Of a DNA stretch of 64,000 bases, positions 13,741-59,904 are shown in pieces; position 1 is the first letter of the stretch; each line of letters begins with the position of its first letter. The position numbers and the translations under genes were made by a program. The stretch is from positions 22,065,399-22,129,398 of the forward strand of contig NC_079206.1 in assembly GCF_026745355.1 (NCBI RefSeq). Reading direction: 5' to 3'. The stretch is from Beta vulgaris subsp. vulgaris (lineage: Eukaryota > Streptophyta > Magnoliopsida > Caryophyllales > Amaranthaceae). The notes below the pieces were generated by a model. It did not search any database. It was given only the letters and a program-made list of their open reading frames with translations, and was not told where the DNA came from.

Positions 13741-13889
13741 AAACGTATAACTAATAGATGCAAAAAAACATCTATCGGGGGTAATATAGTCTTTTCAAAC
13801 ATTAAATTGGATTTGTAACGTTCCACTGAGGAATGGTTCATCCCCGTGTATTCCTAAGTTTGAAATAGAAAAAACAACGCTTAAAAGGT

Positions 13890-16800
13890 ATGATTAGACA
13901 GGGAGGAGACATTTCGGAGAAGAAAATGAAATTGGGAGGAAAAACTTGAAGATTGACGGTGAGAAGAAGCCAAAAAAATCTTCCCCTGAAGAAGAAGAAT
14001 TGAATAATCCACAGCAGAAGCAAAAAAATTACCCTGAAGAAGAAGAATTGAATATTCCACAGCAGAAGAGAATTTTCCCAGCATGTTGGTTTTGGAAATG
14101 GTTGAAGGTAAGTTAAGTTTCGAAATTAATGTGGAAATTCCTTTAATGTTCATAATAAATGTAATTAAAAAAACTATTTTAAGTGTTATTTGAAAATAAA
14201 TGGAAATGGCGGATCTTATGATGAACTCTGTTGCAGTAAGCTGAATCTTAGTTGTTATTGCATGTTAGTGAACATTGAGTTGGTAAATTGAATGTGTTGC
14301 GAAAAATGAGAATCTTGTAGTTGTAAATGAAGATAATTAATTTGAAAAAAATGCTTAGGTGATGAAGGTGGTAATGGTAGGAAGGGGAAGGCCCATCTTA
14401 ATGAGAAGGTAAGTGATATTTTGTGTTGTGAAATATGAATTTGGAATGGTAGCTATAGCACTAAATGATTTATACGGAATCATGTAGGGCAATGAGGGCA
14501 ATGAGGAGGAAGACGGGAGTGAAACATGGCATGATGAAGAAGAGGACGAGGATGACGAAGTAACCTAATATCCCCCTTTATGTTTGTTTATTTAATTAAA
14601 GGATTGTAAAATGTATTGAAGCATTGAATATGATTGTTTTCAAGGTAATTGGACAATCGCGGAAGAGCGGCACAAGGGATAGGCTTCCTGATGAAGTATA
14701 CAGGGTAGTTAGTTTTTGTGGTTGAAGTACGTTGATTTAATTTTATGTGTAGTGAATTGTACTGAATGAGAGATTGCAATGGCAGGTTAATAGGATAAGT
14801 GTTGGCGGAAGGTTGAAGGAGAGTGGGGAAGTGATTGCAAGGCGGGTGCAACTTAACAATAAAAGGGTAAGGGAATGTTTGTTTTAGGCGCATTTTGAAG
14901 CGTAAATGTGTAATTGTGTGCCTACAAACTGTTACTGATAACAGGAAGTAAATTTCAACTGCCGAGTCGAGACATTTGGTCAAATCGTAAAGCAATTTGA
15001 TGAGAGAAAAAAGCGTATGGTGGCTGAAATGGGGTTTGTTGGATTATTGCACTTTGTGGATAAGGGTTTGCCAAGGAATTTATGTTATTGGTTGTGCACA
15101 ATGGTAGATGTGAAGAGGAGGGTACTAGTGTTGAAAGATGGGTTGGAATTCCCTCTATCGAAGATACAAGTCCACTGGGTACTTGGTATCCTCATTGGTC
15201 TGAGGCATGTACCTAAAGTTTGTGAGGACGATGCGATGGAGAATGAAGTTGCAAGACTGTGCGAATCATTTGTTACGCGATGCCCGTCTGGACCTAGGGG
15301 AGTTACGCGGAAGACAATTATGGAAGTTATTGAGGGGCCTTTGGAAGATGACTCAGAATTCAAGAAGGCATTTATGATGATGGAGATGAATGACGTGATA
15401 GCCCCGACAAGTTGTCATCGAATGTCTGTGAAGATGCTCCCAGTTGTAAGTGTTGCAGAGAGGGCAAAAGAATACGATTGGTGTAGTTTTGTGTTGGACC
15501 ATCTTATAAAATGTGTTGGGAATTTTGCGAAAAGGTTTTACGCTGATGGATTTGCGAAATGCTGCCGGTGGTTGCACAATATTTTTGGCGGTATGTTTTG
15601 TTTTATCATATAGGCATTATCTATTATCTAAACCCAGGTATTATTTGACAAAATGTTTTTTCATATAGCCATTATTTATTATGTAAACATAGGTGTTATA
15701 ACCTTGATCGATTGAGGAGGAACCCTGTATCGTGGGGAGTTTTTCCACGAATGAAAGGTTGAACGAAGGAGGATATAAACGTTGCAAAGAAAGATGATAG
15801 GAAAGCATCAGGTGATTATGGTCGCCTCGGGGTAAGTAGTTTATATATATGTATGTGTTTCTTTTTGTTAGTAGCTGGAATAAGATATGTTGTGTTGTGT
15901 TTTTTTTTTTTTGTTAGTAGCTGGAATAAGATATGTTGTGCTTATAAAAATTTGAAGTGTGTGGATGTTGCGTACGGGGAACGTCATCCTTTGGAAGCAA
16001 GGGACAAGATGCCTGAATACTATGAAGTGGATCCCCAGATAATATCTAATTGTAGAACAACACGTAAGAGAAAAGGGGCCTTGAAGGGGAGACGTATAGG
16101 AAACTCTAAATTAAATCCTTATCAGTATAAGTTGCGCAGAGAAGAAGGCAGTAGTAATGGAAGGGAAATGCAAAAGGATGGAAATGCATAAGGTATAGGT
16201 ACGTGTACATCTGCACCAAGATCACCTATATCATTGAGGAGTCACCAACAGTCAGAGGTGGAGGAACCTGATGAATGTTCATCACCATATGCACCCCTAG
16301 GATTAGAGAATGTTAATGTAAATGGGAATTTGCTATTGAATGTGTGTGCATTTGGAGACTCAAGTAGTAATAATACTCTGACAGGTTCCATGGAAGCACA
16401 AGTGGAAGCACAACTAGAGAAGGTGGTGGGTGAGTGTAAGTATGGTTCGGTAATAATGGAGGCACCCATTTTAGGTATGACAGTATTAGAGGGTTCGAAG
16501 TATAGTTGGAGGAAAATGAAGGAGGTTGAAGAAATAAGTGAAGATGAAGATAATGAAAGGAGGTCTTGTTCTAATGAAGGAGGTAATGCGAATGCGAATT
16601 CGGATGGAGAATCGCAAGTAGTGACCGAATTGGTTGGAGAACGAAGCCGTAAACATAGGAAGACAAAGACATCGGTTGTTTTAAGTGAGGAGTACGAGCA
16701 GACGTGGCGTCCGAAGGCAACCAACAAGGACAAATTATTTGATCTGATGTCGAAATGTAAGTAAGTTGTACTACAAGTTGATGAGATCCAATTATTTTTC

Positions 16801-18012
16801 AAAGTATTACATTGAATTATTTGTTAATGTAATATTGCCGGGGAAATCTAATTATAATTGATGTTGATGGGAACTACGCGACATTGAGTTGTTGCAGATC
16901 ATTATCTCAGGCCCGTGGCCGATTAGATGACAATGTAAGTCTCCTGCTAAATGCCAAACATATCAGTGTACATCCTTTAAATGACGATTTTATGTTGGTC
17001 TGGTCTGGTGTTCTCTGTGTAGTATGTTCGAGTTGTTGCATGTCTTTATGTGAAAGTGTGGGGGCGGCGATTTGGAAGTAGAAGCAGGAGGTTGATGCTG
17101 GATCCGACATTTGCGGTCAGTTCTTGTGGTTAGTTATTTTAATAACAACAAAGATGCAAGTAACTCATTAATACATAATTGTTTTTTCCATGTAGATAAG
17201 AGTGCTGCAAGTAGAAGGAGATAGCTGGGAAAGGGTCGATAGGATTATCCAGTCGTGCATCAAGAACACGGAAGTTGCGTCATCTGTTAGGATAAGTGTG
17301 GTATGTACAATGTCATTACCCTTTGACAACGAACAATATGGAATATTGAAAAGTAAACTCAATTTCAGGTTTTTGTCCCTGTTATTGAAGAAGGTCATTG
17401 GTGGTGTGCCGCCTTCTCGGTAAACAGGGAAGAGGTGATGATCATAGACTCCTTGGAAACAAAAAAAGTTGTACACCTGCATCACCTATCACTAGAGAAA
17501 TTGGTACACCTGATTTATGTATTATGGTAATAATTTGAAATATACATTATGCATTATGCAATATACTAATATATGTGGACAGTGCTACGCGATGGACCGG
17601 TATTTTAGTGTTGTCGACAGTTCCTGGGAGATTGGGAACGTGAGCAGATGGCCGCGTTCGACGCTGAAAATGAAGCAGCAGTCGGACTTGTAAGTTTATC
17701 TTAATTAGATTATGATGGGAGTCATTGATGTAAAATAATAATTTATATTATGTTGTATGTTAGGCATAGCTCCGGAGTTTACACGTTGTTAGCTATCAAG
17801 CACAATGCTGATCGTTTTGTCGAGACTGTACACTTGGTAATGTTCCGTTAATTTGTACATACATTCAACTAATAGAGGAGGTTTCCGTTAATTTATTATG
17901 AAATGGACAGGGAAACATTGTGGAAGAGCGTAAATGGTTGCTATGTGAGGATGTCATGTGCGACTTCAACGAGGCCCGCGAAAGTGTGAAGGCTTTGATG
18001 TCATCTTTGTGA
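13890..18012 (+). pseudogene. Ulp1-like (C48) protease, element A
   Basis: Many small exons, matched to the copy in element B. N-terminal acidic exons (two SPEEEELN-type repeats at 13985-14080; EEDEDDEV near 14550); a conserved plant domain at 14945-15597 (FDERKKRMVAEMGFVGLL, GLEFPLSKIQVHWVLGI); a linker (16000-16763); and the peptidase at about 16896-18012. The catalytic His is in GHWWCAAF (17396-17398) and the Asp in IIDS (17447-17449). The nucleophile Cys is replaced by Ser (HSSGVY, codon 17771-17773; element B has HSCGVH). An in-frame TGA occurs in the exon around 15760 where B reads through. The family cleaves SUMO or SUMO conjugates. Kaonashi-type Mutator elements are known to carry such genes. 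The Cys-to-Ser change suggests a catalytically dead, perhaps SUMO-binding, product. No convincing start codon was found in the first exon. Confidence 0.85.
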
Positions 18013-18362
18013 AGGATGTGCTTTACTGTGGAGTTCAGTATCATTGAGCTTTGTGTGCCAGCTTTTAGAGTCTTGGACATTCGGTTGGGTTGGGCTTAGT
18101 TTAGTTATGATTTGTATAGTTTTGAACATTGGGATTGGGGGTATTGTTAGGCAGTTACTTTGAGTTAAGTTTCCTTGGGCTTTCTTTGGCAGCTTTATAG
18201 TCTTGTACATTGGGCATTGGGTTGGGCTAGTGTTTTGCATGGCAGTGAAGTAAATATATGATATTATATTTTTGTTATGATATTTATGAATCCATGTTTT
18301 GCATTGGGTTATGAATACATGAAACTAGTTATGAAGTAAAGTAATGGATTCATGAAAACAAT

Positions 18363-19170: not shown

Positions 19171-20193
19171 TTATAGACAATAATGACAATGGAAATAAAA
19201 TGGAGTAGTAACTATCAAACGTACCTGAACATCACCCACGAATTGCGCGTGGGCGCCACCCTCAGCCATGCGGACATCCACATTAACGTCGTTTCCACAC
19301 CACATCACAGCCATCCCCCCACAAATGCCGACGCCGTTGACGCACTCAAACTTCATGGATGTGCCTAGTAGTGCATGAACCTCCGCAAACTCATGCTGCG
19401 TCACCCTTGTTTCTAGTAGAACCATGACCACCGGTTGATGAACACCGAAGATAGTCCAGAAATGAGATACGAAACTAGGCCTCGCACAACCCCTGACACT
19501 CCAAATTAAAAGTGGGGTGTGTGGGGATAAAGGGTTAAGTTCACTTATGCCCCCCCTTAGTCGGACCATAGTGAAGTGCCACTCCTCCTCTCTCCTAACG
19601 CGCGTATCAGAAAACATGGTTATCCGTATGTGTGACATTGGGGCCATGATGTGCATCACATGAAGGTTGTGTACATAACTGGCCATGAGAACTTGAACGA
19701 CCTGAGTTCTCATCAAGTATATGAAACCTGAATCAGGAATTGTGAATTTTGGGTCCACAATGTACCTAGCAAAATCAGGCACAATCTTTTTACTTCCTTC
19801 ATCATCTAGCCTGCATATACTCCAATCTATGAACACATTGAATGCATCTGGTACCTTAATAAGATCACTTATGTTAGGTAGGTGGCCAATCCTGGCCGGA
19901 GTCTATGCTTCTTGCATCTTCAGGGGACTGTATAAAGTGCAATCAGGATGATCACGTCGAGGATTGCGTATGATCTTCCTCAGTTTCCACGGGGTGGCAT
20001 TAACTTCCCCAAAGTAGGAGTTATCCCTCCAATAATTAATTTTGTTGAAATCTAATTCCGGCTTTCCTATGGGTGGGGGGATGGCATATATGGTGGACCT
20101 AGTTGAACATTCGGTGAAGGACCACCCTGTTGGTGGTTCGATGATGGGGAAATGTTTGCATATTCTGCCATGAGGGAGTTTGAAGATAAACAA
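19171..20193 (-). pseudogene. endonuclease-like domain protein, element A
   Basis: One frame from 20193 to 19171 interrupted by a single TAG near 19904. The N-terminal 200 residues are unfamiliar. The C-terminal part has the start of an endonuclease/exonuclease/phosphatase fold as in LINE endonucleases: a W-x-RG block (LLIWSVRGCARPSF), then VVMVLLETRV, then GICGGMAVMW. The domain stops shortly after, at a good splice-donor-like site (CAG/GTACGT near 19226), so only the N-terminal half is visible. Element B has a counterpart at 49496-50344 that ends at the same point. The full DNase catalytic set is therefore absent from what is seen. The function is unknown. Confidence 0.6.
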
Positions 20194-21077: not shown

Positions 21078-21623
21078 CTAGTTCGTTCCCTCGTCGTCTA
21101 AATCGGTTTCCTTCCTCTTGTTCTTCTTGCTCGTTCCCTCGTCGGAATCGGTACATTTCCTTTTCTTCTTATTGCTCGTTCCCTCGTCGGAATTGGTACA
21201 CTTCCTTTTGTTCTTCTTGCTCGTTCCCTCGTCCGATTTTGGAAACATGTCTTCCCCAAAAAGAAGAGGAAACCCGTCAAGGAAGTCTGCCCAGTCAATG
21301 AACAATCTAGCGTACAAAGAGACGGCATTAAAAAAAATAATGTCCCGTGCCGTCTCGGCCCTTGTATTCATCATATTCTTGTACCATGCAGATTCTTCAA
21401 GGAACTCATCACTGTACAACCTCCATAGCCTGCATGTACCACGAATTGCGTCTCTTGAATACGCGGAACACCTTTCAAAAATTTCATGTATCATGATGTG
21501 TTCAATTGACACCAAAGGATGGCGAGGGTTTTCTGCATCAGCATTTTCATTATCTTCCGCAACATTTCTATGTTCTTCGTTTTCTCCCTCCATATTCCTC
21601 TCTTGTTTGTTTTCTCCCTCCAT
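21078..21623 (-). CDS. F-box-like protein with Lys-rich repeats, element A
   Basis: 181 residues, uninterrupted. Residues about 34-75 (HPLVSIEHIMIHEIFERC ... GTCRLWRLYSDEF) have the spacing of an F-box: a hydrophobic helix, a variable loop, then a Cys-x-x-Trp-Arg helix. A second conserved block DFLDGFPLLFGEDMFP (about 113-130) is shared by family copies in element B. The tail has three repeats of SDEGTSKKNKRK, probably nuclear-localising. An N-terminal MEGENKQERN duplication is present. If the F-box reading is right, the protein could bind SKP1 and enter an SCF ubiquitin ligase; that is inference from a short motif. It is the only intact gene in element A. Confidence 0.6.
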   Translation of the reverse strand: MEGENKQERNMEGENEEHRNVAEDNENADAENPRHPLVSIEHIMIHEIFERCSAYSRDAIRGTCRLWRLYSDEFLEESAWYKNMMNTRAETARDIIFFNAVSLYARLFIDWADFLDGFPLLFGEDMFPKSDEGTSKKNKRKCTNSDEGTSNKKKRKCTDSDEGTSKKNKRKETDLDDEGTN

Positions 21624-21702
21624 ATTTCTTTCTTGTTTGTTTTCTCCCTCTTAAATTTTTTCTTCTCAGTGTATGTCAATTATGAATAACTACTGATTAT
21701 TT

Positions 21703-21751: not shown

Positions 21752-21784
21752 GTTTTGATGTAGTGTGACTGTTCACTTCCCATG

Positions 21785-22420: not shown

Positions 22421-22531
22421 TTAAATAATCATAATGTCCTTGTAATGTAACCGTAGCCAATTAAATAATCCCCATTATTTTCCAAAACTGCTTAATTGGA
22501 AAGCATAGTTTTGAGGGTTTACGAATAAGAA

Positions 22532-23091
22532 ATGGATAGCAAAGGATCAACTTCAAGCACCCGTACGTGGAGGTCCTCCGCAAAATCAACCGTATATTGC
22601 AATCACAATACTACAGCCGTCCTCAGAGTGACAAAAAAATTGGGTGCTAATGCCGGACGGAAATTTTATGGTTGTCCCCTTTGGCCGGTGAGATACGAAA
22701 TTTTGTTTTAATTTTTTATTATTACTATTTTATTTTTTCTTTAATATTGTGATCCATACTTTTCTGATTAGAATGACGGCGAGTGTGGATTCTTCAAATG
22801 GGCGGACGACGACCATGTGGAGACTGTATGTATCGGCGTTGGAGATGGAACTACAAGCAGCTGCAATTGCATTAAAGGCGTTGAACGAAGAGAAGGAGGT
22901 TATGCAGAAGTGAATTACAGAATTGCAGAAGAATAATGAAGATTTGTTGGAGTCCAATATAAATTTGAAGAATGAAATAACACAGTTAAGGATCGAAGTC
23001 CTAAAATGTGGCAGATCTGAGAAATCCGCTAATTTTGCTTTTTTTCATTTCCTGGGTTGTATTTGCCATTGTACTTTACGTGAAGGAGTAA
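22532..23091 (+). pseudogene. GRF zinc-finger / coiled-coil / membrane-anchor protein, element A
   Basis: Exon 1 (22532 to about 22689) encodes a Ser-rich start and the first half of a GRF zinc finger (CNHNTTAVLRVT ... GRKFYGCPLWP). After a short intron, exon 2 gives ECGFFKW, completing the finger. A frameshift follows, then a coiled coil (ELQAAAIALKALNEEKEV, one TGA, then Leu-rich heptads) and, in another frame, a C-terminal hydrophobic helix (LILLFFISWVVFAIVLYVKE) before the stop at 23089-23091. The intact homologue at 45120-45652 shows the same layout. GRF fingers bind single-stranded DNA or DNA-repair enzymes in other proteins. The membrane tail suggests anchoring to a membrane such as the ER or nuclear envelope. 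Confidence 0.75.
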
Positions 23092-23288: not shown

Positions 23289-24004
23289 ATGAGTTCATCT
23301 TCGTCCGAGTCAAATTCCTCCTCAGTGGAGGGAATGTCCATATCCTCAACTGGATCTGACACAATTTCAACAAATGGTAGTTCGGCTCATCAAGGGGTCC
23401 CTCTTGCAAAAAAATGCATGTTCCTCGTCAAGGGGGCTGATATAGATGACGACGGTGTTGAGTATCGGATGAGCATGCACAAACAACTACGTGTTGTCTA
23501 TGATGATTACGCAAAACGATCCGTGTACACCTAGCTTACTTGAGTTTGGTTTACCATAAAAAATTGTTACAACATGATGGGAGTCCAAATACTTACAAAT
23601 TCAACACCTCCGGTGATGTTGTCCTTGCTTACAAGAGGGTAAAACATATTATTATTTTCAATGTTGGTTTTACGTAATTGGCAATATTTATATTTAAGTA
23701 TGGTTTCTTTACATAATAGGACACCGATGAAGGGATTCCCGTAAATCCTCGAATGAATGAAGATAAAACCATCACCTTCACCATTCAAGATTTACGGACA
23801 TGCCCAACTGTGGAGAGGTTTCGCATGCCTAAAAATACACCAATGTTGGAAATTTATGAACAATGGGCAGCAAGTCAAGGTGTGTTTGAAGAGAAAGTTA
23901 CATTATGGCTTGATACGGATGTGCTACATCGACATGCTACAATTGAGCATTCAAATGTTTACGACGGTGCTATCATTTACAGCCAAGTGAACAAAGTCCA
24001 ATAA
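23289..24004 (+). pseudogene. tandem SUMO-like domain protein, element A
   Basis: Exon 1 (23289-23638): a Ser-rich tail, then a beta-grasp domain (KKCMFLVKGADIDDDGVEYR ... VVYDDYAKRS) that continues in another frame after a frameshift near 23520 up to SGDVVLAYKR. Exon 2 (23720-24004) encodes a second domain (TITFTIQDLRTCPTVERFRM ... KVTLWLDTDVL ... YDGAIIYSQV). Both follow the SUMO pattern: initial VKG strand, Tyr before the central helix, hydrophobic-Leu strand, TP loop, then D-x-V/I near the end. Two SUMO-like domains without a C-terminal Gly-Gly resemble the Rad60/Esc2/NIP45 type and not a conjugated SUMO. It sits in the same element as a SUMO-protease-like gene. One lesion. Confidence 0.65.
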
Positions 24005-24390: not shown

Positions 24391-27300
24391 AAGAAGTCTC
24401 TGTATTGATAAACCTATGAGCCAACGGTAAAAAACTTAGTATTAGTACACATAAAAACATAAACTACAATTAAAAACCAACACGATACTATTGCTACCTC
24501 ACTAGTAGGCCACAACTGCAGCTCCAAAGGTGGTGATGGATTTACGTAATCCAAATCCTGTAATGAACAACGGCCTTGCTCAATGCTAATTTTGTGTAAA
24601 AAACCCCTTATTAATTTTTTGCAAAACCATCAAGTTGAATCAAGTTTGGTCTTACTAAATACCTGAGAGGGGTCTGCACTCTCCTTGCGTTTCACTCCTT
24701 TCCCTTTCCCCTTCTTAGGTGCTTGTTGCTGCTTCTTCTTAGCTTCCTCATTCTTCCCTTCATCATTATTTCCCTTCTCATTCTTGGCCTTCTCATTCTT
24801 CGCCTTCTCAACGCATGACTTAATTCTACCTCCCGTTTAGTTTTTTTCCTAGGGGGGTCTTTAACCGAGGCAACGTGAACTTCTATGCGACTACCTTCAC
24901 ATTCATTTGGGGACTTCTCTACCCTATTGCAGCTGCCAACTCCTACAGAACCATTTGCCAACTGCATCCATTGTGTGTTACCAACAGAAGTAGGAGTGCA
25001 ATCTTTCAAGCTCATACTAGCTATCTTCATGGAATTCCGTTCATCTAGGCGTATGTTCAGTACTTGGAGCGTCTCCAACACAGTGTGAACATCACCATAG
25101 TTGGCTGCCTTCAAGCAGATTGGGTCAAAAACCACCATCATTCTATCATAGTTCTGCACTTCATCCGTCTTTGAGGGATCGTGATAAGCTACCTTCACCA
25201 TTGTATGCTTCCGGAATACATCTTTCCGCCATCGTCGTAGTATGTACTTTTCAGGTATCTCCTTAATTTTCAACTTATTATATAACGATATTATATGCCT
25301 ACATAAGATTCCCGCAGACTCAAACAACTTGCATTCAACTTAGCTTCGGTCGTCTCCATGTCTATAAGAACAACATATTCACAATTCCTATCAAGAGGCA
25401 CCTCCTTTTTAGTGTCCTTGCAAACCACCCAAACCCTATCCTCATACGTATGTTCAACCAAATCGTCTCCAACATCCTGCTTACCAGTCCATTCAAGGTA
25501 TAACACCTTCATACATTCATTTTGTATGTCCCTAAATTTAGCATCGGTGTACAACTTTTGGAACACAACCTCCGTCTTGAAAGTTGTGACAGCAACACGG
25601 AGATACCTTGAACTATTTGCATCAGCTTCCCTCTCCGCATTTGGTCTTGCTTCCATCGCGTTGCAATATTACTCAGCAAACTTGCATAATTTTGTGGTTT
25701 TGTGAACATAACCATCGAAAAAACTGTTGATGCTCTCACACCTTTGGGTTGTCTTCATTCCCACCCAAAATAGATGCCTCATGTAAGCAGGAACCCACAT
25801 ATCTCTTTCCAGAAACAAACCTGAAGAGTCATTATGCTAAAAACTTTAAAACAAATGCAGGCACATAACATACCATGCAGTAGTACATTTCTTCACTTAC
25901 AACATAAGCCATATGTACTAAACCTCATGTAAGCTTGGTTGATAATTTCACTTAACAAACATACCTTGAAGCCATTCATCATCACCTAGCTCATACTTCT
26001 CTATCGCACAAAGCCAACTCCTCTCAAAAACTTCTGGACTTACACTCTCGTATATGGCTTTCGTCAAACGCTTCCTTCAAATCTTTGTAATTAGCATATG
26101 AATCAAGCTTCTTCCCAAATTTCATCATGATGTGCCAAATGCACCACCGGTGTACAGACTCTGGCATAGCATTGCGAAGGGCCTTCCTCATAGCAGCATC
26201 TTGGTCTGTAAATATTCCAATGGGTGCCTTACCCCCCATACAAAGCAACCATGTGCTAAAGACCCACTCATAAGTCTCCGCATCTTCGTGCGATACTAGC
26301 GCACAACCAAGCAATATGCTCTGCCCATGGTGGTTCACTCTAACAAAGTTTGCAAAAGGTAATTCATAATCATTTGTCAAATATGTCGCATCGAAACATA
26401 CCACGTCAACAAATTCTTCGTATGCCACCCTCGACCTAGCGTCAACCCAAAGCACATCCTTCAAATACCCTTTATCGTCAAGTCGATGAATGTGGAAAAA
26501 AATTTGATTGTCAGCTGCCATCTTGTTAAAGTACATTAGCATCGCATTTGCATCTCCGGGCCCAAGTTTCAACTTCCGTTCCTTGGCAATCATATTCCTA
26601 AGATCCCTCTCTGTGATAACCATATTCTCAATACCATTTCGTTCACGCGCTAAGCTACTATGAGTCTGTGATATTCTAATGCCAACAGCGTGATCATTAA
26701 ACAACCGCCTTCTAACAGCGCAACTGACCTCCTCCTTCCTAAACATGCTAATGAACCTCGATTTGCTTGGTGTTGGATTATGGTTGACATGATCCAAAAC
26801 GATCCTCTTCACTACCCATTCCCCCCCCCCCTTCATTACATGCAACATACATTATAATAGGGCAATTGCATTTCTTAGACTTCCTAGTTGGCACTTCTAC
26901 ACCTTTACGTCCAACCGCAACCCACCCCTTCAATGTTCGTCTCAAGTCAGGTTTACCATTACACTCAGATTTCCAAGTGTAATTCCTAAACTCCTTCTTA
27001 ACTTCTGCACCACTCACCTCTTTCCCTTTCACACCTACTTTCTTCAAAGACCCAGCTGCCTTAATTACACCGAAACCTTCCTGCTTTCCATATCTCCTAA
27101 AATAATCATCATCGTATTCCCATGTGCCAAATACCATTCCAACTGCATGTGGTTGCACAATAGTGTTTGACCCACAACTATGAGGATCAGGTGTCTCAAT
27201 AACAGCCAATTCATCATTATCATGACAATTCATGTCCTGCAATTCCAATATTATAATATCCACACTTAAATGAAACATCAATTCCAATATTATATTTTCC

Positions 27301-34234: not shown

Positions 34235-34270
34235 TTTTGTCTATAGGAGGACTAAACTGCAAAGAACAAA

Positions 34271-40485: not shown

Positions 40486-40548
40486 AAAAATGAGCTGTGG
40501 AGGTGTGATGGTTAATGTGAAATTAAGGCATCTATTAATTGTTATATG

Positions 40549-47876: not shown

Positions 47877-47959
47877 GTTTCTTTCTTGTTTGTTCTCTTA
47901 TACTTTCTCTTTTGTATGTCAATTATGAATGACTAATGATTATTTTGCCTTATTTATAC

Positions 47960-49200: not shown

Positions 49201-49495
49201 GACGTGACTGAAACGTACATTCTGTGTTATTAATCTTTAACAAGTGTGTTGCAGTAAACAATATGTAACAATCCTTCATAAGTTGCCAAGTGTCATATAT
49301 ACTAGGAACCTTGTTAATTTATTACAATTGGAAAATTCCCGCCAAATAGAGCCGAAAATTAGAAAACAAAAACTGGAAATTTCATTTTCTATTGTTGCGC
49401 GCGAAGACCATGTGATAAATAGTGGGAGGCCTCCCATAATCTTCTATTCACAACCACACATAACCTTCCAAACTAAAATTTTCCTTTCGTCTACC

Positions 49496-50344
49496 ATGGA
49501 TAATGTGCTGATAAAAACCAATGAAATTAAAAGCCACCCACGAACACTACACTCTACCATGGATAATGTCGAGCACGATGGGGTGTCGAAAAGTGTCGCT
49601 GCTGTAAAGCCATGTAGTTCAGCACGCAACTTGTTGTCCATGGAATGCATCTCCATAGACGACGTTCTTCAAGGTGTCCTCCACCCAAATACGAACTTCA
49701 ATGCCCATGATCTAGTTCAAATCGACAGCGACGACGTCATCACGCCATACTTCTGTCCAGACGTTGGGGACATAGCATTACATCCGAAGTGGCTTAAATG
49801 TGTACTTACATGGCTCCTTGTAAATTCAAAGAGAGTAGATGTCATGAGTAACCTACACTTAATTGACATTTGCTCTCCTCTCACTCCACGTGTTGAGGTT
49901 ATTGTACTTCAATCCACTAAGTACACGATGGCAATCCGCAGCTTCCAATACAGGTTAACAATTATACGCATCCCATTTACAAGTGATGAAATAGCATTAC
50001 GAGTAATAGTTAACTCTCACCAAACGACCAATGATGTTAGAGATGGTCGTACTTTTAATTTGAGTTTGGAGAAATTAAACAATTCTACTACTATTTGTAA
50101 GCGACGAAAAGTCAACATTTCGAAGTTCCTAACTTTTGCGGTGTGCAATTGTCGTGGTATAGGTCGGAAAACATTTCCAGCAAAACTACAAGAAATATTG
50201 GGTGTACATACACCTGATATAGTTATTTTGTCAGAGTGCAAGGCGTCAAAGGTAATGGCAAGAATTGCTTTGCGTAAATTTAAAGTGAAAAATTTCTCAA
50301 TGGCCGATGCAGATGGTGTTGCAGGTGGAATAGCGATTTTTTAA
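49496..50344 (+). CDS. endonuclease-like domain protein, element B
   Basis: The frame is open from 49244, but ACCATGG at 49496 is the better start, giving 282 residues. About 200 N-terminal residues are unfamiliar. The C-terminal part has NCRGIGRKTFPAKLQEIL, PDIVILSECKAS and GVAGGIAIF, the first third of an endonuclease/exonuclease/phosphatase domain of LINE type. It ends at the point where such domains continue with Trp, exactly as in element A (19171-20193). The shared truncation suggests this short form is what the elements carry. The residues for metal-dependent cleavage located later in the fold are absent, so nuclease activity is unlikely. No lesion. Confidence 0.55.
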   Translation: MDNVLIKTNEIKSHPRTLHSTMDNVEHDGVSKSVAAVKPCSSARNLLSMECISIDDVLQGVLHPNTNFNAHDLVQIDSDDVITPYFCPDVGDIALHPKWLKCVLTWLLVNSKRVDVMSNLHLIDICSPLTPRVEVIVLQSTKYTMAIRSFQYRLTIIRIPFTSDEIALRVIVNSHQTTNDVRDGRTFNLSLEKLNNSTTICKRRKVNISKFLTFAVCNCRGIGRKTFPAKLQEILGVHTPDIVILSECKASKVMARIALRKFKVKNFSMADADGVAGGIAIF

Positions 50345-50985: not shown

Positions 50986-50999
50986 ATAGTTCTAAATAT

Positions 51000-52390
51000 A
51001 TTTCAAGTATATGCATATAATAAACAAGTATGTGCATATAATTAACAAGTATGTGCATAATAAACAAGAGTATGCATATAAGAAACAAGTGTATGCATAT
51101 AAGAAACAAGTTTATGCATATAATAAACAAGTGTATGCATATAAGAAACAAATTTATGCATATAATAAAGAACTGTGTGCATATAAGAAACAATTTTATG
51201 CATATAATAAACAAGTTTATGCATATAATAAACAAGTGTATGCATATAATAAACAAGTGTATGCATATAAGAAACAAGTTTATGCATATAAGAAACAAGT
51301 TTATGCATATAAGATACAAGTTTATGCATATAAATACAAGTTAATGCATATAATAACCAGTGTATGCATAATTGAAACAAGTATATGCATAATTGAAACA
51401 AGTATGTGCATATGAGAAACAAGTATATGCATATAAGAAACAAGTATTTGCATAATTGAAACAAGTATGTGCATATAAGAAACAAGTATTTGCATATAAT
51501 AAACAATTGTATTTATATAATAAACAAGTGTATGCATATAATAAACAAGTGTATGCATATAAGAAACAAGTTTATGCATATAATAAACAAGTGTATGCAT
51601 ATAAGAAACAAGTTTATGCATATAATAAACAAGTGTATGCATATAAGAAACAAGTTTATGCATATAAGATACAAGTTTATGCATATAATAAACAAGTGTA
51701 TGCATATAAGAAACAAGTTTATGCATATAAGATACAAGTTTATGCATATAATAAACAAGTGTATGCATATAAGAAACAAGTTTATGCATATAATAAACAA
51801 GTGTATGCATATAAGATATCAGTTTATGCATATAATAAACAAGTGTATGCATATAAGATATAAGTTTATGCATATAATAAACAAGTGTATGCATATAAAT
51901 ACATGTTAATGCATATAGGAAACAAGTATTTGCATAATTGAAACAAGTATATGCATAATTGAAACAAGTATGTGCATATGACAAACAAGTATATGCATAA
52001 TTGAAACAAGTATGTGCATATGAGAAACAAGTATATGCATATAAGAAACAAGTATTTGCATAATTGAAACAAGTATGTGCATATGAGAAACAAGTATATG
52101 TATAATTGAAACAAGTATGTGCATATGAGAAACAAGTATATGCATATAAGAAACAAGTATTTGCATAATTGAAACAAGTATATGCATAATTGAAACAAGT
52201 ATGTGGATATGAGAAACAAGTATATGCATTTAAGAAACAACTATTTGCATTATTGGAACAAGTATGTACATATGAGAAACAAGTATTTGCATAATTGAAA
52301 CAAGTATATGCATATAAGAAACAAGTTTTTGCATATTACAAACTAGTATATGCATATAATAAACAACAAGTATGTGCATATAATAAACAA
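51000..52390. repeat. large minisatellite, 21-bp unit
   Basis: About 65 copies of units like TATGCATATAAGAAACAAGT and TATGCATATAATAAACAAGT. Because 21 is a multiple of three, several frames on both strands stay open (YAYKKQV- or MHKLVSY-type heptads, up to 220 codons), but these are not genes. Some sections have higher-order alternation of AAGAAA and AATAAA variants. Confidence 0.95.
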
Positions 52391-52769
52391 GAAACAAGAC
52401 AATTTACTACATGACAAATGTATGTCCCTATTTTTACAACTCCATAATTAAGTTAAACCCCATACATAACAAATATATGAACCAAATGATAATGACGTTA
52501 ATTAAGTTATAAATGGGCCTGTATTAAATTTAAAAATAGGGGATGTAATTAAGTTAGTAATTGGGCCTGTTAATCAATAAAAATTGGGGTTCTAAATAAA
52601 ATGGGCCTGTAATTCTTATAATTCTTAATTAACTTATGGATGACTAAACAATTATATGGCCCAAAGTGGGGAAATACAATTAACAGTCACGTAATTAAAT
52701 GAAACGTCATTTCCCAACAAAAAAATAAATGAAATGTCATACTTTGGAACGTCACCTTACGTCTCTATA

Positions 52770-52876: not shown

Positions 52877-53415
52877 ATGGATGGAAAAAACCCACAGTCA
52901 GAAGAAAACTTGAGTGACAAACAAAGAGAGGCAGATGCTCGTTGGGGACGGAGCATCAATTAAAGAAAAAAAAAATTAGTGTGGAAGGGAGGAACTGATC
53001 AACCGGATGCCCACCCTGTTCTCTCAAATGAATATTTAATGAGAGAACATACTATTCCGAAGTGTCACTGGGATTCAGAAAGAGATATTATCCCAGATGT
53101 CATCTTGATTCCAATAGATCAAATGGAACAGACTTGCAGGTTATGGTATGAATTTACCCGTCCTGAAGACCCCCCTATAAATGTGTGGAAGAGTGTTGAA
53201 ATGGAGAGGAGGGAGGAAATTGCTAGGGATATCATTAGATTCGACGCCGTACAACTGCATGCAAGGATGTCAAGGGATTGGGTGATTTTTGTGATGGGTT
53301 TCCGCTTCTCTTCGGGGAAGACATGTTTCCAGACATGAAGAAGGGGAAGGGGAAAAGGAAGGCAACAGATTGCTTGGTTGAAGACGAAGGATGCAGCAAA
53401 AAGAACCGGGTGTAG
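52877..53415 (+). pseudogene. F-box-like protein, element B copy 2
   Basis: Starts MDGKNPQSEENLSDK, then an in-frame TAA near 52960; the frame resumes with HPVLSNEYLMREHTIPKCHW ... CRLWYEF and IARDIIRFDAVQLHARMS. A one-base shift near 53290 separates the C-terminal block DGFPLLFGEDMFPDM and a Lys-rich end (KKGKGKRK ... SKKNRV, stop 53413-53415). About 17 residues are inserted between the two halves of the F-box-like motif compared with other copies. Two lesions. Confidence 0.55.
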
Positions 53416-53986
53416 TTATATAGTATGTTATTTAGTTATTTACGTAAATATAAGTTTATTCTACTTTACTTTAAGTTTTTATATAGTATATAGTACGTAG
53501 ATAAATATAATTGTAGTTGGTGATCTGAGTTTTTTTTTTTATGGAATTATGATATATATAGTTTTTTTTTGTATGGAATTATGGTTTATAATTGTTTACA
53601 TGGTATTTTTGTGAATGGAGTTTTCATTATAATATATGTCAATTTTTTGTTTGCAATTACTGTATAAAAAAAATTAATAATCTCTGGCTAAATTTTCTGG
53701 CCATAAGAAATTACCAGTTTGTTAAATGGTCCAGATTAATTATCCCAGATCAAGTGGCACAGATTAACATTGAAGAGCGTGAAATTGCAGAAATTAACTG
53801 TGGACGATAATGACGCACAGTAGAGTAGAGTAAGAAATGAAGAGTGACTATTGATTAGACACCAGCTAATAATATATTAGTTTATAAATACCAAACACCG
53901 GTTGTTACTCTATTTTTACATTTCTAAACCAAGAACAAAGAAAGTAAGAAAAACCTCTACCATAATATTTTTGTACAAACTGAAAA

Positions 53987-54268
53987 ATGGAGGGACCAAA
54001 TGGAAATGATCAACCTTTAGCCCACCCTATGTTCTCCGTAGAACACGTAATGAGAGAATTGATTTTACCAAGGTGTGATTGGGATACACAAGTAGCAATC
54101 AAAAGAACATGCAGGTTATGGAGGGAGTTTTCCCGTCCTCGTCATGAAGATATACCTGCATGGCAAAGGTATGACATTAAGAAGAGGGCGGATATGGCTA
54201 ATCATATTATACGTCATGATGTTGTGACACTACATGCAACCATGTCAACAGATTGGGTGTGCTTGTAG
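53987..54268 (+). CDS. F-box-like protein, short form, element B copy 3
   Basis: 93 residues, no internal lesion: MEGPNGNDQPLAHPMFSVEH, then ILPRCDWDTQVAIKRTCRLW, then MANHIIRHDVVTLHATMSTD and a stop after WVCL. It lacks the DGFPLLFGE block and the Lys-rich tail of the other copies, so it keeps only the F-box-like part. It has its own TATA box (53883). A protein with a SKP1-binding motif but no target-binding tail could act as a competitor; this is speculation. 54270-55190 after it is AT-rich without a gene. Confidence 0.5.
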   Translation: MEGPNGNDQPLAHPMFSVEHVMRELILPRCDWDTQVAIKRTCRLWREFSRPRHEDIPAWQRYDIKKRADMANHIIRHDVVTLHATMSTDWVCL

Positions 54269-55196: not shown

Positions 55197-58100
55197 TCAC
55201 AATGTACTTAATAGATCAATAACACTACTTCTTGCTTCGTTCTCCGTTGACATAACGTCTTCACATAGCAGCCGCTCCCGTTCCTTCGACATATTATCCT
55301 TTATAAATTAGGGATACAAAGGAATTTAAGTGTGAGTAAACTTATGTTACTTATAAAAAAATATCTTAAGTACTTGGATAAAGAAACAAATACCACAACA
55401 ACTCTCTCCACAAAACGATCCGCACAAGCTTTAATCGCAATGAGCATATGGACACCACAACTATGTCTATCCGTGTGCATGAAAAAAATACAATTCGTTA
55501 TATTGTAACCTGTATAAATATTTAAATTTTCAATCACGAAATATAACTTAAGATAATCATACGTGTCATTTTGGATGTTCATGTCCAAGCTCACAGTCGG
55601 CCAAGTATGTATGCGCCCTACTCTCCAAGATGGATCCAAAGCACTAAATAACGTATCCATAGCATACCCCTACAATGATATTTGTTCCTTCATTGTTACC
55701 ACATTCATTATAAATATATACTCTCTTAAAAAGGTCAATGGTACTTTACCAATGTTGTGAGGCTGAGATGATGGCAATCTGGTGCCTTCTTTGGCTCCAA
55801 TGAATCCATCACCAACACTTCTCCCCTATTTGGAGAGTAAGCCGTGCACCACCAATGCTTATTCTCAAGAACCGGAACAAATACCTTCACCAATGTTCAA
55901 TTAATTTCAAATTGTACTATACCCATTAACAAATACATACACAACTTTCAGTACTTACGTGTACTATCCTTTTCCAAGAAGTTCCAACCATTTGCTTCGC
56001 ATAAGACGATACAAGTTTCTCTACATCTCTTATACCATCCTGGAGTACTCGTATCTACAAGGTAACATAACACACATGACTTATTTCCTAATTATAACAT
56101 TCCTTGCATTTTTTTAAGCACTTAATTTCAATCTAACCGCAAATGTCGGGTCAATCATAAACCTCCTACTCCTCCCTGGAAAACGTTTCTCCCACACTTT
56201 CGTGTATAAAATTGCTGCCAACCTAACATACTGCAACCACATGTGTAGCATTAAGGATCTTAACATGTTTATTTATACACAAATACATTTCAAAAATACG
56301 ATATAATACTTACATTATCGTCAACCCACCCCCTAGGACGTGCGACAGAAGCACAACTTTGTAAAGACGCGTAGTTCTCGTCACACTTAATCATATCTGT
56401 TGTCTTCAGCGCACTCCGATAATTATCCCTTACAAACCTCCCTAGCTTTTTCTTGTATTGCTTGTATTGGCATGGCCGCCATGTCTCCTTATAACCTTCA
56501 ATTCTTTTAATCGACCACTTAGTCTTTCGTTGCTTGCGACTTCGACCACCCTCATCCTCATCCTCATACTCAATTACCTTATCCCCCTAACCCCCCTCAT
56601 CCTCACCCCCCTTATCCCCCTTACCCCCTCATCCTCATCCTCATTATTTCCAACCCGTTCACCCACCAACCCCACACCCTGCTGCTCACCTATACCTCGA
56701 GAACCATTTCCACCAACCTCATCCTCATCAAAACATTATTTACAACTTGCTCACCTATAGCTCCACTGCCACTGCCACCAACAACCTCACCTACAACTCC
56801 ACTCCCACCAACCTGCTCACCTATAGCTCCAATACTACCACTGCCACTGCCACTGCCACCAACAACATTATTCACAAACATTTCACCAAAACCTTCCCAA
56901 CAGTATTTTGACCCCTCCCCTTGACTTCCACAAACTGGGTCATCCTCACCGACATTATTATTCTGACCAATAACATGAATTACTTCACGAAGATGCAATG
57001 TTTCTGTATGGGGTTGGGGTTGGGAAAATTAGTAAACATTTACATTAATACATCATTTCCAATATTTATTAATTACTTCACCAAGATGCATCCAATTTTA
57101 CATTTACTAAACCCATTACTTACCATATTCTCCTAAGCCATCATTGGGGCCCGTCTCGTTTTCCAACTCCGGCCGCTGCTCAGCAACTTCTTCATGCACT
57201 GGAGCTTCATGCACTAGACCTTCATGCACTGGACCACGCACTGGACCTTCATGCACTGGAGCTTCATGCATAGGATCTTCATGCACTGGAGCTTTCTTCT
57301 TCATTCTCCTTCTTTTACTCTTCGTGCTAATGCCAGCACTACAACGACTCATTTCCTGCATTCAAAAAACATTATTGAAGAGGATGTCTTCAATCAAAAC
57401 CAATTGCTAGATATAAAAGTACCTCAATATCTTCTACTGTTGGCATGACATCCCGAGCCTCCAGATGATGTCTTCCCCCATAAGCGACATCAATACCCTA
57501 ATTAACATTTTCAGCATCTACATTAATATTCTAAACGCATAAAAATAACCCAACCAAATAGGCAATACGGATTCATAATATACACACCCCAAGCTTGCCA
57601 TAATCACCAGTGGCCAGCAAATCTTCCTTCTTCACCTTGTTCACATCTACGGTACTCCACGCCCGTATCCTTGGAAAAGCCCCCCACATCAATGGTGGTC
57701 GGCGCAACCGATCAAGATATAGAATCTACATCAACCGATCAAAATTACTAAAGCAAAAACATTTTTCTACTACATCATAAATACTACAAATATTATAACA
57801 TTGACTTACCGCTAAGAACATAGTGCACCCACCAGACCCCTTAGCAAATCCATCAAGGTAGAATCTTTTTGAAAATCCACCAATCGCATTCATGAGATGA
57901 TCCAGTAACAAACTACACCAATCATACTCATGAGCTCTCTCTGCTACAAATGCAGCATACAACATACTCACGGCCAATCTCTGACATGTCGTAGGGCATA
58001 TCAGATCATTTAAGGCCATCATCAGAAAGGCCTTCTTAAATTCAGCATCTGAAGATATTTCACCTTCAACAATTTGTTTAATCACTAGCTTTAATTCCCC

Positions 58101-59068
58101 TAACACCAGAACGACTAGTATACCCATATACATCAAAAAACCTCATTACCTCATCAGAACCCTCATCATCATCACCGTAGAATGGTACAGTCTTCGGCCC
58201 CGCCGGAATACCCATAACCCAATAAACCTGTGTCTTACTAAGAGGGAATTCTAGCCCATCGGGCATCAACAACACCCTATTCTTAACATCAACCCTTGTA
58301 CATAGCCAATAACAAAAGGTCCTAGGCAAACTTTTACCAGCGAAAAACAAAAGACCACCAAAGCCCATCTCCGTCACTAGCTTTCGCTTCCTCTCATCAA
58401 ATCCCTTCACAACCTTCCCAAATTTCTCTACTCTACAATTCATATTACTCTCCTACATGAAAATAAACAATATATGAGCATTTAACATATCAAAATCAAC
58501 TTTTTAAATATATAACAAAACACAATCTAATCATCATATAACATTACTCTTTTATTATTCCTGGCAGTTGTGTAGCAATTACTTTGCCTTCTGCCTTCAA
58601 GCATCCACCTATGCTTAGATCATTCTCCTATTATAAGTTACATGCATTACATATTATATACTTCATTTATTCACCGTGTAATCAAAACTTCAATAATAAG
58701 AACTTCAATAACATTACTTACCCGATACACTCGTACTTCTATTTCTTTATACGCTCTTCCAGATTTCTTCCCTATTACCTATTTTCCATTTCTATATAAT
58801 ATCATTATTACAAAAAAAATAACAAAATCATATATATATATATGCCAATAAGAACATCAAATGTACCTCTCTTTCCCCGTCTGAATGAAGATCCTCGGTA
58901 CTAGATTCTTCATTGTCATCACTTACATGCACATCATCGAATTCAGACACCTCCATTTGAAATTATTAAATAGCTATATCAGTTACAAACTTACAATAAT
59001 CACATTATAAATTAAAAGCACTCATAACTCCAAATTACAACAATTTTTACCTTTTGCTTCTTCGCCAT
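55197..59068 (-). pseudogene. Ulp1-like (C48) protease, element B, triad kept
   Basis: Exons by comparison with element A: 59051-59068 (MAKKQK), 58870-58950 (acidic), 58695-58760, 58560-58635, the conserved domain 58443-57810 (FDERKRKLVTEMGFGG, GLEFPLSKTQVYWVMGI, VAERAHEYDWCSLLLDH), 57720-57580, 57510-57430, a repeat exon 57380-57120 (PVHEGPVHE type), Gly/Ser-rich 57000-56690, and the peptidase 56600-55197. The active-site set is complete: His in KHWWC (55855-55857), Asp in VMDS (55804-55806), Cys in HSCGVH (55457-55459). It ends LLCEDVM ... LLSTL with TGA at 55197-55199. One single-base insertion near 58090 breaks the frame; no other lesion was found. The family processes or removes SUMO. 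It is convergent with the rest of the element, with its 5' end beside the right terminal repeat. Confidence 0.87.
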
Positions 59069-59824
59069 TTCTGCAATACTCCTTGATTACACTAACAAAA
59101 TACATACAATTATATTCAGATTCATAGTCGGAATGCAAACTATACTATCTACTAGCAGATTCTATAATATCTAGTACCAGCAGAAATTACACAATAATTT
59201 ATATTTAACCTCTAAATCATAATTAAACATACTTTTCTTTTCCAGGTTCTCATGACATGATTTCTCTTCTCACCATACAAATTGAAATTTATTCTAAAAT
59301 GAAGATTACAAAATTTCGAACACAAGTTCTCAACACTTTTATCAACATTTCAAATTTGATTTTAACCATCATTATATTTACAAATATTATACTTTTTTTA
59401 TTTTCACATCAACTCCTATCTTTCACACTGCATTACTACAAATTCTTTTTTCTTAATATAAATATAAATTCAATTATTCGCGCACTTAATTATACAATTT
59501 TAATTTTTTAAATTTACCAAAAATCACTATTTTTACATGAATTTTTTTAAATCAATATAAATATAGAATTCAGATGTTTCCACCAGTAAATATATAATAA
59601 TACCACTTTTAAATAATTTATATATATATCACAAATTTTACTTACATTATCGGCGCATGTTTCTTCTTTGTCTTCTCCGACGATTTTTTTTTCCTTCTCC
59701 AAAGCTTTCTCTCTCTTCGTTTTATCTTTCAGTCAAGAGTACTGATAATTCTCTCTCCTCCCGTTTTCTTTCACACAAATACACAGAGTGTTTTTTGTCC
59801 TCAGCCGTCACTTTATGCCAGAGT

Positions 59825-59886
59825 TTCTGTCATTTCATGCTTTTTCTTTTTTTTCAAACCCAACTTTAAGGAAACTCCTTCCCACA
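59825..59886 (-). repeat. right terminal inverted repeat of element B (best-conserved part)
   Basis: The inverse of 34271-34331: TTCTGTCATTTCATGC and AAACTCCTTCCCACA. Outside 59904 the sequence changes to GGTCC/GGTTTAGGG-rich repeat material, and no TSD matching the left side was found. Confidence 0.8.
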
Positions 59887-59904
59887 ATTTCCACGAGCTG
59901 GACC

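What the first reader, a model, noticed from the sequence alone, without database searches (positions are those of the whole stretch)
13880..59904. Two related giant Mutator-like elements with a shared multi-gene cargo
Elements A and B both carry six gene types: FAR1/MULE transposase, Ulp1-like protease, tandem SUMO-like protein, GRF finger/coiled-coil/tail anchor, F-box-like protein, and a truncated endonuclease-like protein. The transposase and Ulp1-like genes sit at opposite ends and converge in both. The copies are diverged, so the gene set was kept over time and not captured twice recently. Ulp1 in Mutator-like (Kaonashi) elements is known; this whole combination is not one I know to be described. 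The cargo suggests an element that manipulates host SUMO and ubiquitin pathways.
Basis: partly seen in the sequence, partly recalled or inferred. Interest (0 to 1): 0.93.

Follow-up and report, generated by a model that had tools for sequence, protein, structure and literature searches.

The report
Two large beet jumping genes with cargo
This stretch of a beet chromosome holds two old, broken copies of a large jumping gene that carries a protein-tag-cutting enzyme and look-alikes of the tag itself, which may once have helped it avoid being switched off by the plant.

Summary
The observation mostly holds. The window is beet DNA: the best matches to the B transposase exon are Beta vulgaris proteins (98, 97, 96%). 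Element B (34268-59889, 25.6 kb) has a significant ~64-bp terminal inverted repeat but no target-site duplication; element A (about 13.5-28.4 kb, inferred) has no callable ends. From the transposase end both keep one order: FAR1/MULE transposase, GRF plus tandem SUMO-like pair, F-box-like gene, endonuclease-like fragment, convergent Ulp1-like gene. Transposase and Ulp trees are compatible, and a third beet pair has consecutive locus tags.
Corrections: 8 of 10 gene copies (endonuclease fragments aside) are broken; A's protease has Ser for the expected Cys; the F-box segment is much younger (dS 0.36); F-box and endonuclease labels are unconfirmed; the SUMO-like genes lack di-glycine. New: the Ulp gene's N-terminal half resembles the plant mobile domain (below cut-off), and element-specific motifs fill non-coding tandem arrays.
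Ulp1-carrying Jittery-like MULEs are in print; the wider set was not found in ten searches. Best mechanism (inferred): a cut-and-paste MULE with a SUMO- and PMD-directed anti-silencing module.

The parts
34268..34331 (+). Element B left terminal inverted repeat (~64 bp)
   Evidence: Pairs with 59825-59889; local alignment score 52 against shuffle maximum 41 of 100
59825..59889 (-). Element B right terminal inverted repeat
   Evidence: no 8-11 bp target-site duplication consistent with the TIR ends
35297..38010 (+). Element B FAR1/MULE transposase gene (one intron; frame broken near the C-terminus)
   Evidence: PF10551 1.1e-33, PF03101 1.3e-7, PF04434 3.6e-5; Beta vulgaris relatives at 98, 97 and 96% on three contigs
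39847..40578 (-). Element B ORF of unknown family
   Evidence: 243 aa ORF, no Pfam hit
41189..41935 (-). Element B XRCC3-like (RAD51 paralogue) fragment; no counterpart seen in A
   Evidence: PF08423 9.9e-28; best solved-structure match XRCC3 9.7e-34
45120..45652 (+). Element B GRF zinc finger / coiled coil / C-terminal hydrophobic anchor gene, open, one intron
   Evidence: PF06839 1.3e-8 above cut-off; hydrophobic stretch at residues 130-148
45895..46651 (+). Element B tandem SUMO-like gene (frame broken in domain 1, in-frame stop in domain 2)
   Evidence: Relative P0001; weak SUMO matches for both domains; Rad60-SLD 0.0046, below cut-off
47261..47897 (-). Element B F-box-like gene (one in-frame stop)
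   Evidence: 67.5% aa to A by tblastn; F-box 0.014 and 0.045, below cut-off
49241..50344 (+). Element B truncated endonuclease-like ORF
   Evidence: Similar to A 19171-19902 (score 71, 0 of 1000 shuffles); no relevant Pfam or PDB hit
52964..53338 (+). Element B second F-box-like ORF
   Evidence: tblastn to the other copies; alignment A3; no Pfam hit
53984..54268 (+). Element B third F-box-like ORF
   Evidence: no Pfam hit
55200..58452 (-). Element B gene with plant-mobile-domain-like N-terminal half and Ulp1-like C-terminal half, about eight exons read by eye; His/Asp/Cys present; frame broken in the N-terminal part
   Evidence: 57.5% aa to A over the first 120 residues; C48 0.007 and PMD 0.03-0.16, below cut-off; relatives with PF02902 1.1e-6 and 4.9e-7; alignment A1
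51004..52391 (.). Element B 21-bp tandem array (66 copies) with core AAACAAGTG; eight further copies of the core at 42929-44882
   Evidence: TRF; 21 sites in B, 1 in A, 1 elsewhere in the window
14942..18009 (+). Element A gene with PMD-like and Ulp1-like halves; Ser where the catalytic Cys is expected; in-frame stop at 15760
   Evidence: PMD 0.0011 and C48 0.0072, below cut-off
19171..19902 (-). Element A truncated endonuclease-like ORF
   Evidence: no Pfam hit
21081..21650 (-). Element A F-box-like gene, open frame of 190 aa
   Evidence: F-box 0.094, below cut-off; dS 0.36 to B
22532..23090 (+). Element A GRF / coiled coil / tail-anchor gene, broken by frame shifts and a stop
   Evidence: 57.6% aa to B over 33 residues of exon 1; reading frames
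23289..24004 (+). Element A tandem SUMO-like gene (domain 1 broken, domain 2 open)
   Evidence: 36% aa to B domain 2; profile of both, SUMO2 8.4e-4
24692..27317 (-). Element A FAR1-type MULE transposase gene, broken (frame shifts; stop at 25671-25669)
   Evidence: PF10551 2.3e-32; 74% aa to B core; Beta protein P0018 matches this locus, P0005 is an annotated A-type relative of 735 aa
18344..18810 (.). Element A 21-bp tandem array with core GAACACAAT; further copies at 20386, 20841, 22222, 22264
   Evidence: TRF; 15 sites in A, 1 in B, 0 elsewhere

Best explanation
Elements A and B are two anciently diverged, now defective members of a beet-lineage family of large FAR1-domain (Jittery-type) Mutator-like transposons. 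Besides the transposase they carry a convergent gene whose protein joins a plant-mobile-domain-like (PMD) half to an Ulp1-type protease half, and a shared accessory set: a GRF-finger/coiled-coil/tail-anchored protein, a tandem SUMO-like protein, an F-box-like protein and an endonuclease-like fragment. Shown: similarity, gene order, divergence, decay, B's terminal repeats, several transposase relatives in Beta, compatible transposase and Ulp trees. Inferred: the transposase moved the element by cut and paste from TIR to TIR. Inferred with less certainty: the PMD-Ulp1 protein disarmed host silencing at the element, its PMD half by imitating the host PMD silencing proteins MAIN/MAIL1 and its protease half by stripping or binding SUMO; the tandem SUMO-like protein (no di-glycine, so probably not conjugated) was a decoy or recruiter for SUMO-binding host proteins; and element-specific motifs in non-coding tandem arrays were the address, much as VANC proteins find their VANDAL targets. 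The part played by the GRF and F-box-like proteins is unknown; the F-box segment was exchanged between lineages late.
For: Transposase domains; TIR of B, score 52 against a shuffle maximum of 41 of 100; A-B similarity of each gene; PF06839 1.3e-8; SUMO as the commonest PDB match of both SUMO-like domains; C48 above cut-off in two relatives and H/D/C kept in B; PMD profile hit in A at 0.0011 and in 7 of 16 relatives up to E 1, best 9.9e-5. Transposase tree: A and B in one Beta-only clade of 11 tips (0.998), the chr2 locus in another (1.0). Ulp tree: A+B 0.943, chr2 clade 1.0. pN/pS 0.20-0.57 in seven segments. Tandem arrays fill 19.7% (A) and 21.8% (B) of non-coding DNA against 3.4, 1.1 and 10.6% outside, with element-specific cores. 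In print (passages): VANC-target tandem repeats (PMC5735166, PMC10398659); Ulp1-carrying VANC-type genes with hypomethylation of their own elements (PMC13317346); the suggestion that TE-encoded PMD proteins counter MAIN/MAIL1 silencing (PMC8616336); Ulp1 in Jittery-like MULEs (PMC2528002).
Against: No TSD for B, no ends for A. 8 of 10 gene copies are broken. A's protease has Ser at the expected Cys, and Bienertia P0122 has neither His nor Cys there. PMC6117577 (passage) reports that Kaonashi proteases are more distant from SUMO proteases than the deneddylase DEN1 and unlikely to act on SUMO. DUF1985 was found in neither window gene nor any of 16 relatives. All PMD hits are far below the curated cut-off (at most 22.1 of 34.9 bits), and 9 of 16 relatives have none. 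C48 is seen in 3 of 16 relatives, two above cut-off. P0001 has no Pfam hit. F-box and endonuclease labels are unsupported by profiles. The node joining A+B to the quinoa relative is weak in both trees (0.746, 0.652). The right flank also has 10.6% tandem repeats. No expression, methylation or protein data.
Confidence: 0.55

Rival explanations
1. Passive cargo: an Ulp1-carrying Jittery-like MULE that captured host gene pieces as Pack-MULEs do. The accessory genes hitchhike and have no role in transposition or silencing.
For: B carries an XRCC3-like fragment with no counterpart seen in A. GRF, SUMO-like and F-box-like genes are each broken in at least one copy. The F-box segment has its own, younger history. 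Capture is common in MULEs (passages of PMC13317346 and PMC2528002).
Against: The same gene types lie in the same order in two elements whose synonymous sites are near saturation, with pN/pS well below 1 for Ulp, GRF and SUMO-like; unused fragments should not keep that.
Confidence: 0.28
2. The Ulp1 and SUMO-like genes serve the transposition reaction itself: they tune SUMO-dependent repair at the excision or insertion site, not silencing.
For: Bao et al. (PMC2836005, passages) proposed that Ulp1/OTU domains in transposons act on repair factors; the commonest PDB matches of the tandem domains are SUMO; B has taken in an XRCC3-like piece.
Against: The XRCC3 piece was seen in B only. Element-specific tandem arrays and the PMD-like half fit an anti-silencing role better.
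Confidence: 0.15
3. The interval is a patchwork of separate insertions and no multi-gene element exists.
For: No TIR or TSD was found for A; GRF-SUMO and F-box are each inverted between A and B; the F-box segment is younger.
Against: B is bracketed by a significant TIR pair 25.6 kb apart; the order transposase, GRF/SUMO, F-box, endonuclease-like, Ulp is the same in both; a third transposase-Ulp pair has consecutive tags elsewhere.
Confidence: 0.1

Closest known systems
Ulp1-carrying Jittery-like MULEs of grapevine and melon (PMC2528002, passages)
   Same: Jittery-like MULE with an ULP sequence downstream of the transposase; that paper's two multi-copy Jittery-like families are 11.9 and 14.4 kb (which of them carries ULP is not clear from the passages)
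   Different: The words SUMO, F-box and GRF do not occur in that paper's main text; B is 25.6 kb and carries the wider set
Kaonashi (KI/KIU) MULEs of Arabidopsis
   Same: Ulp1-type protease gene in reverse orientation to the transposase gene (PMC2528002, passage)
   Different: KI-MULEs are non-TIR with a mudrA transposase (PMC2528002) and VANDAL-related (PMC13317346) in the passages read; here the transposase is FAR1-type, B has TIRs and no DUF1985 was found
VANDAL / VANC anti-silencing system (PMC5735166, PMC10398659, passages)
   Same: Family-specific short motifs in tandem repeats in non-coding parts of the element; an extra gene beside the transposase
   Different: No DUF1985; binding and demethylation untested here
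PMD genes in plant MULEs, and host PMD silencing proteins MAIN/MAIL1 (PMC6446971 table, PMC8616336 passages)
   Same: PMD reading frame beside a MULE transposase, often antisense to it; proposed counter-silencing role
   Different: Here the PMD-like half is below cut-off and joined to an Ulp1-like half; the table lists FAR1 but no PMD for the dicot/monocot Jittery group
Ginger1 transposons with Ulp1 or OTU (PMC2836005, passages)
   Same: A ubiquitin-like protease domain associated with a DNA transposon
   Different: Different transposase; the domain is fused to it; no SUMO-like protein in the passages read
RENi proteins (Rad60, Esc2, NIP45; recalled)
   Same: Two SUMO-like domains in tandem without di-glycine
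   Different: Rad60-SLD profile is below cut-off (0.0038 to 0.045); the gene is in a transposon

Membership tests
Jittery-group MULE (group 36 of PMC6446971, table passages) | MULE transposase domain | tested here: met
   PF10551 2.3e-32 and 1.1e-33
Jittery-group MULE (group 36 of PMC6446971, table passages) | FAR1 domain in the N-terminus | tested here: met
   B 1.3e-7 above cut-off; A exon no hit; A-type relative P0005 0.0028 below cut-off
Jittery-group MULE (group 36 of PMC6446971, table passages) | SWIM or CCHC in the C-terminus | tested here: met
   B 3.6e-5; A 0.012 below cut-off
Jittery-group MULE (group 36 of PMC6446971, table passages) | TIR 39-292 bp, or none | tested here: met
   B ~64 bp, A none found
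Jittery-group MULE (group 36 of PMC6446971, table passages) | Target-site duplication (table: 'Not indicated/8 bp'; 9 bp in other MULEs) | tested here: not met
   8-11 bp scanned around B's ends with up to 1-2 mismatches: none consistent with the TIR; no 9-bp candidate with a partial TIR for A
Jittery-group MULE (group 36 of PMC6446971, table passages) | Falls in the Jittery clade of a transposase tree | not tested
   No Jittery reference sequence was used
Kaonashi (KI) MULE | Ulp1 (C48) gene in reverse orientation to the transposase gene | tested here: met
   Orientation in both elements; C48 0.007 in both, below cut-off, above it in relatives P0123 and P0135
Kaonashi (KI) MULE | Non-TIR element | tested here: not met
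   B has TIRs; none found for A
VANDAL/VANC | DUF1985 in the accessory protein | tested here: not met
   No hit up to E 0.5-1 in window pieces of A and B or in 16 relatives
VANDAL/VANC | Family-specific motifs in non-coding tandem repeats | tested here: met
VANDAL/VANC | Protein binds the motif and removes methylation | not testable with these tools
   Needs ChIP or EMSA and methylomes
Plant mobile domain protein | PF10536 above curated cut-off | tested here: not met
   A 0.0011 (18.6 of 34.9 bits); best relative P0128 9.9e-5 (22.1 bits)
SUMO | C-terminal di-glycine for conjugation | tested here: not met
   Both genes end without it (A ...YSQVNKVQ, B ...YAQVMHRPQV)
F-box protein | F-box domain above curated cut-off | tested here: not met
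   Best 0.014, 15.8 bits against 20.5
RENi / Rad60-type tandem SUMO-like protein | Two SUMO-like domains, Rad60-SLD profile | tested here: inconclusive
   PF11976 0.0038 (A), 0.0046 (B), below cut-off, for domain 2; P0001 (domain 1) no Pfam hit; SUMO matches for both domains

The most novel reading that the evidence does not exclude
A plant DNA transposon family carries a multi-part counter-silencing kit, namely a PMD-like/Ulp1-type fusion protein, a non-conjugatable tandem SUMO mimic and a membrane-anchored GRF protein, addressed to the element's own DNA by fast-changing tandem motifs: a transposon-borne anti-silencing system that has evolved on a Jittery-type MULE separately from VANC.
Probability: 0.2. 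Interest if true: 0.85.

Novelty: new variant of a known kind. Interest (0 to 1): 0.6.

Why it matters
Ulp1-type proteases in plant MULEs have been reported since 2006 (cited in PMC13317346 and PMC6117577), and the passages read call their function unknown. An element that keeps the protease together with a tandem SUMO mimic over a time long enough to nearly saturate synonymous sites points to SUMO signalling itself as the target, and makes that testable in a crop whose genome holds long open relatives of the transposase. If the arrays prove to be target sites, anti-silencing by tandem-motif recognition would extend beyond VANDALs.

Tried and rejected
TIRs for A by ungapped repeats and local alignment: none above shuffles. 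A first alignment with loose scoring was uninformative, below its own shuffle mean. TSDs: none consistent; five control regions gave 1-4 chance candidates where A gave 0. Structure models of SUMO-like domain 2 (mean pLDDT 47.2; its strand/helix order looks ubiquitin-like) and of the F-box-like protein (42.2) were too poor for a fold search, so none was run. PDB search with the F-box-like profile: one irrelevant hit. Known VANC motifs YAGTATTAY (3 in A, 3 in B, 0 elsewhere) and AGTTGTMC (4, 2, 1): small counts, no expectation computed. Equal age of all cargo was rejected by the F-box dS. The whole set was not found in print in ten searches (two returned no paper); most subscription papers are not held, and Hoen 2006 and van Leeuwen 2007 were seen only as cited by others. 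Ten papers were opened, passages only. PMC5240378 (A. palmeri EPSPS cassette with Ulp1 and plant-mobile-domain genes) was a lead not followed further; in PMC12804786 (beet MITEs) the words Ulp1 and FAR1 do not occur in the main text.

Full report
WHAT THE WINDOW IS. The best matches to the B transposase exon (35297-36658) are Beta vulgaris subsp. vulgaris proteins at 98, 97 and 96% identity on three contigs of different length (690 proteins at E <= 1e-5 among 3304 candidates, 120 listed). P0018, a Beta protein, matches the A transposase sequence and sits beside A in the tree; it is very probably the annotation of this locus. The window is therefore beet nuclear DNA. The own-genome search did not complete (ten tries), so copies elsewhere were reached only as annotated proteins.

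ELEMENT B. Its ends are a ~64-bp inverted repeat, 34268-34331 against 59825-59889, score 52 where 100 shuffles reached at most 41. No 8-11 bp duplication consistent with these ends was found. Inside, left to right: transposase(+), an ORF of unknown family(-), an XRCC3-like fragment(-), GRF gene(+), SUMO-like gene(+), F-box-like gene(-), endonuclease-like ORF(+), two more F-box-like ORFs(+), Ulp1-like gene(-).

ELEMENT A. From 14942 to 27317: Ulp1-like(+), endonuclease-like(-), F-box-like(-), GRF(+), SUMO-like(+), transposase(-). No ends could be called; scaling from B suggests about 13.5-28.4 kb (inference). Read from the transposase end, both elements have the order transposase, GRF/SUMO-like pair, F-box-like, endonuclease-like, Ulp; the GRF-SUMO pair and the F-box gene are each inverted between the two. 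Exon boundaries in the GRF gene (after the Trp-Pro of the finger) and in the SUMO-like gene (after the first domain) lie at matching places in A and B (read by eye), which argues for one ancestral set and not two captures.

AGE AND CONSTRAINT. A-B comparisons give pN/pS 0.20 (bootstrap 95% 0.15-0.26) for the transposase core, 0.50 (0.33-0.74) for the FAR1 part, 0.22 (0.17-0.29) for the C-part, 0.38 (0.30-0.48) and 0.41 (0.28-0.56) for two Ulp parts, 0.57 (0.42-0.78) for SUMO domain 2, 0.51 (0.35-0.75) for GRF exon 1. Synonymous sites are near or at saturation (pS 0.59-0.93; dS undefined in 5 of these 7), so only the ratio is informative. The F-box gene differs: dS 0.36, dN 0.20, pN/pS 0.61 (0.43-0.86), and non-coding DNA beside it is still 72-83% alike. 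This segment was shared later than the rest, by gene conversion or re-acquisition.

CO-INHERITANCE. Transposase tree from 26 of the 120 listed relatives plus A and B; Ulp tree from 15 of 16 relatives plus A and B (P0137 dropped). A and B fall together in both (a Beta-only clade of 11 tips, 0.998; A+B+P0125, 0.943) and the beet chr2 locus falls in a different Beta clade (1.0 in both). Quinoa relatives join A+B in both trees with weak support (0.746, 0.652). P0130 as annotated has no C48 domain.

PROTEIN IDENTITIES. Ulp C-terminal half: C48 at 0.007 in spliced B and 0.0072 in spliced A, both below cut-off; of 16 relatives quinoa P0123 (1.1e-6) and spinach P0135 (4.9e-7) pass, P0132 (7.7e-4) just fails, 13 have no hit. 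In alignment A1 B keeps His, Asp and Cys; A has Ser at the Cys; Bienertia P0122 has neither His nor Cys. Ulp N-terminal half: the plant mobile domain profile PF10536 turns up, always below cut-off and over overlapping profile positions, in A (0.0011), in B pieces (0.032, 0.16) and in 7 of 16 relatives (best 9.9e-5). PMC8616336 (passages) says that host PMD proteins MAIN and MAIL1 silence transposons and that TE-encoded PMD proteins may be a counter-silencing strategy; PMC6446971 (table) lists PMD frames, often antisense, in several plant MULE groups. SUMO-like: one relative was found (P0001, E 2.4e-35; 316 candidates) with an open first domain; 24 of its 26 PDB matches up to E 5 are named SUMO/SMT3, best 0.015, but it has no Pfam hit. 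The domain 2 profile has SUMO2 4bkg at 8.4e-4 on top and 28 of 33 matches named SUMO/SMT3; A's domain 2 alone found only an unrelated chain at 0.28. Neither gene ends in di-glycine. GRF: PF06839 1.3e-8 with a C-terminal hydrophobic stretch. F-box and endonuclease labels remain leads.

DECAY. Transposase A (frame shifts; stop at 25671) and B (frame broken near the end), Ulp A (stop at 15760, Cys lost) and B (frame break), SUMO-like A and B, GRF A, and F-box B (stop at codon 94) are broken: 8 of 10 copies, the endonuclease-like fragments not counted. GRF B and F-box A are open. Annotated Beta relatives of 627-735 aa exist (P0002-P0005), but P0005 and P0002 lack the SWIM stretch and P0004 the FAR1 part, so whether any gene is whole is open.

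NON-CODING ARRAYS. Tandem repeats fill 19.7% of A's and 21.8% of B's non-coding DNA, against 3.4% (left flank), 1.1% (between) and 10.6% (right flank) (coding limits set by eye). The cores differ: GAACACAAT 15 times in A, 1 in B, 0 elsewhere; AAACAAGTG 21 in B, 1 in A, 1 elsewhere, with eight of B's 21 outside the main array, at 42.9-44.9 kb. VANC targets in VANDALs have this architecture (passages of PMC5735166 and PMC10398659), but DUF1985 was not found here.

READING. These are real, related, large FAR1-type MULEs with a conserved multi-gene set. Ulp1 in Jittery-like MULEs, and Ulp1 in reverse orientation to the transposase in KI-MULEs, are in print (PMC2528002, passages). The tandem SUMO mimic and the GRF anchor beside it were not found in ten searches of the paper library. 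The SUMO- and PMD-directed anti-silencing mechanism is my inference; against it, PMC6117577 (passage) judges Kaonashi proteases unlikely to act on SUMO. Passive cargo is the main rival.

Noticed in passing
5800-10174 (-): Ty1/copia-type LTR retrotransposon coding region: gag, integrase and SH3-like domains significant by Pfam in 7040-10174, with the frame broken within the reverse transcriptase part.
   Followed up: partly
12345-12812 (-): 155-aa coiled-coil-like ORF that recalls the tail of plant En/Spm-type transposase genes (recalled); no Pfam hit above cut-off.
   Followed up: no
29022-29056 and 29125-29159: 35-nt inverted repeat, 89% complementary, 68 nt apart, between the two elements: a possible small MITE or hairpin.
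   Followed up: no
48875-48911 and 49143-49179: 37-nt inverted repeat, 95% complementary, inside B among 10-bp tandem repeats.
   Followed up: no
63211-63790: Pentamer arrays (CTGAA, TCTGA) in the right flank.
   Followed up: no
41189-41935 (-): XRCC3-like single open frame of 248 aa inside B, no counterpart seen in A; a captured repair-gene piece.
   Followed up: partly
P0122 (Bienertia sinuspersici, 850 aa): Ulp relative in which both the His and the Cys of the triad are replaced while the surrounding region aligns, a candidate pseudo-protease.
   Followed up: no
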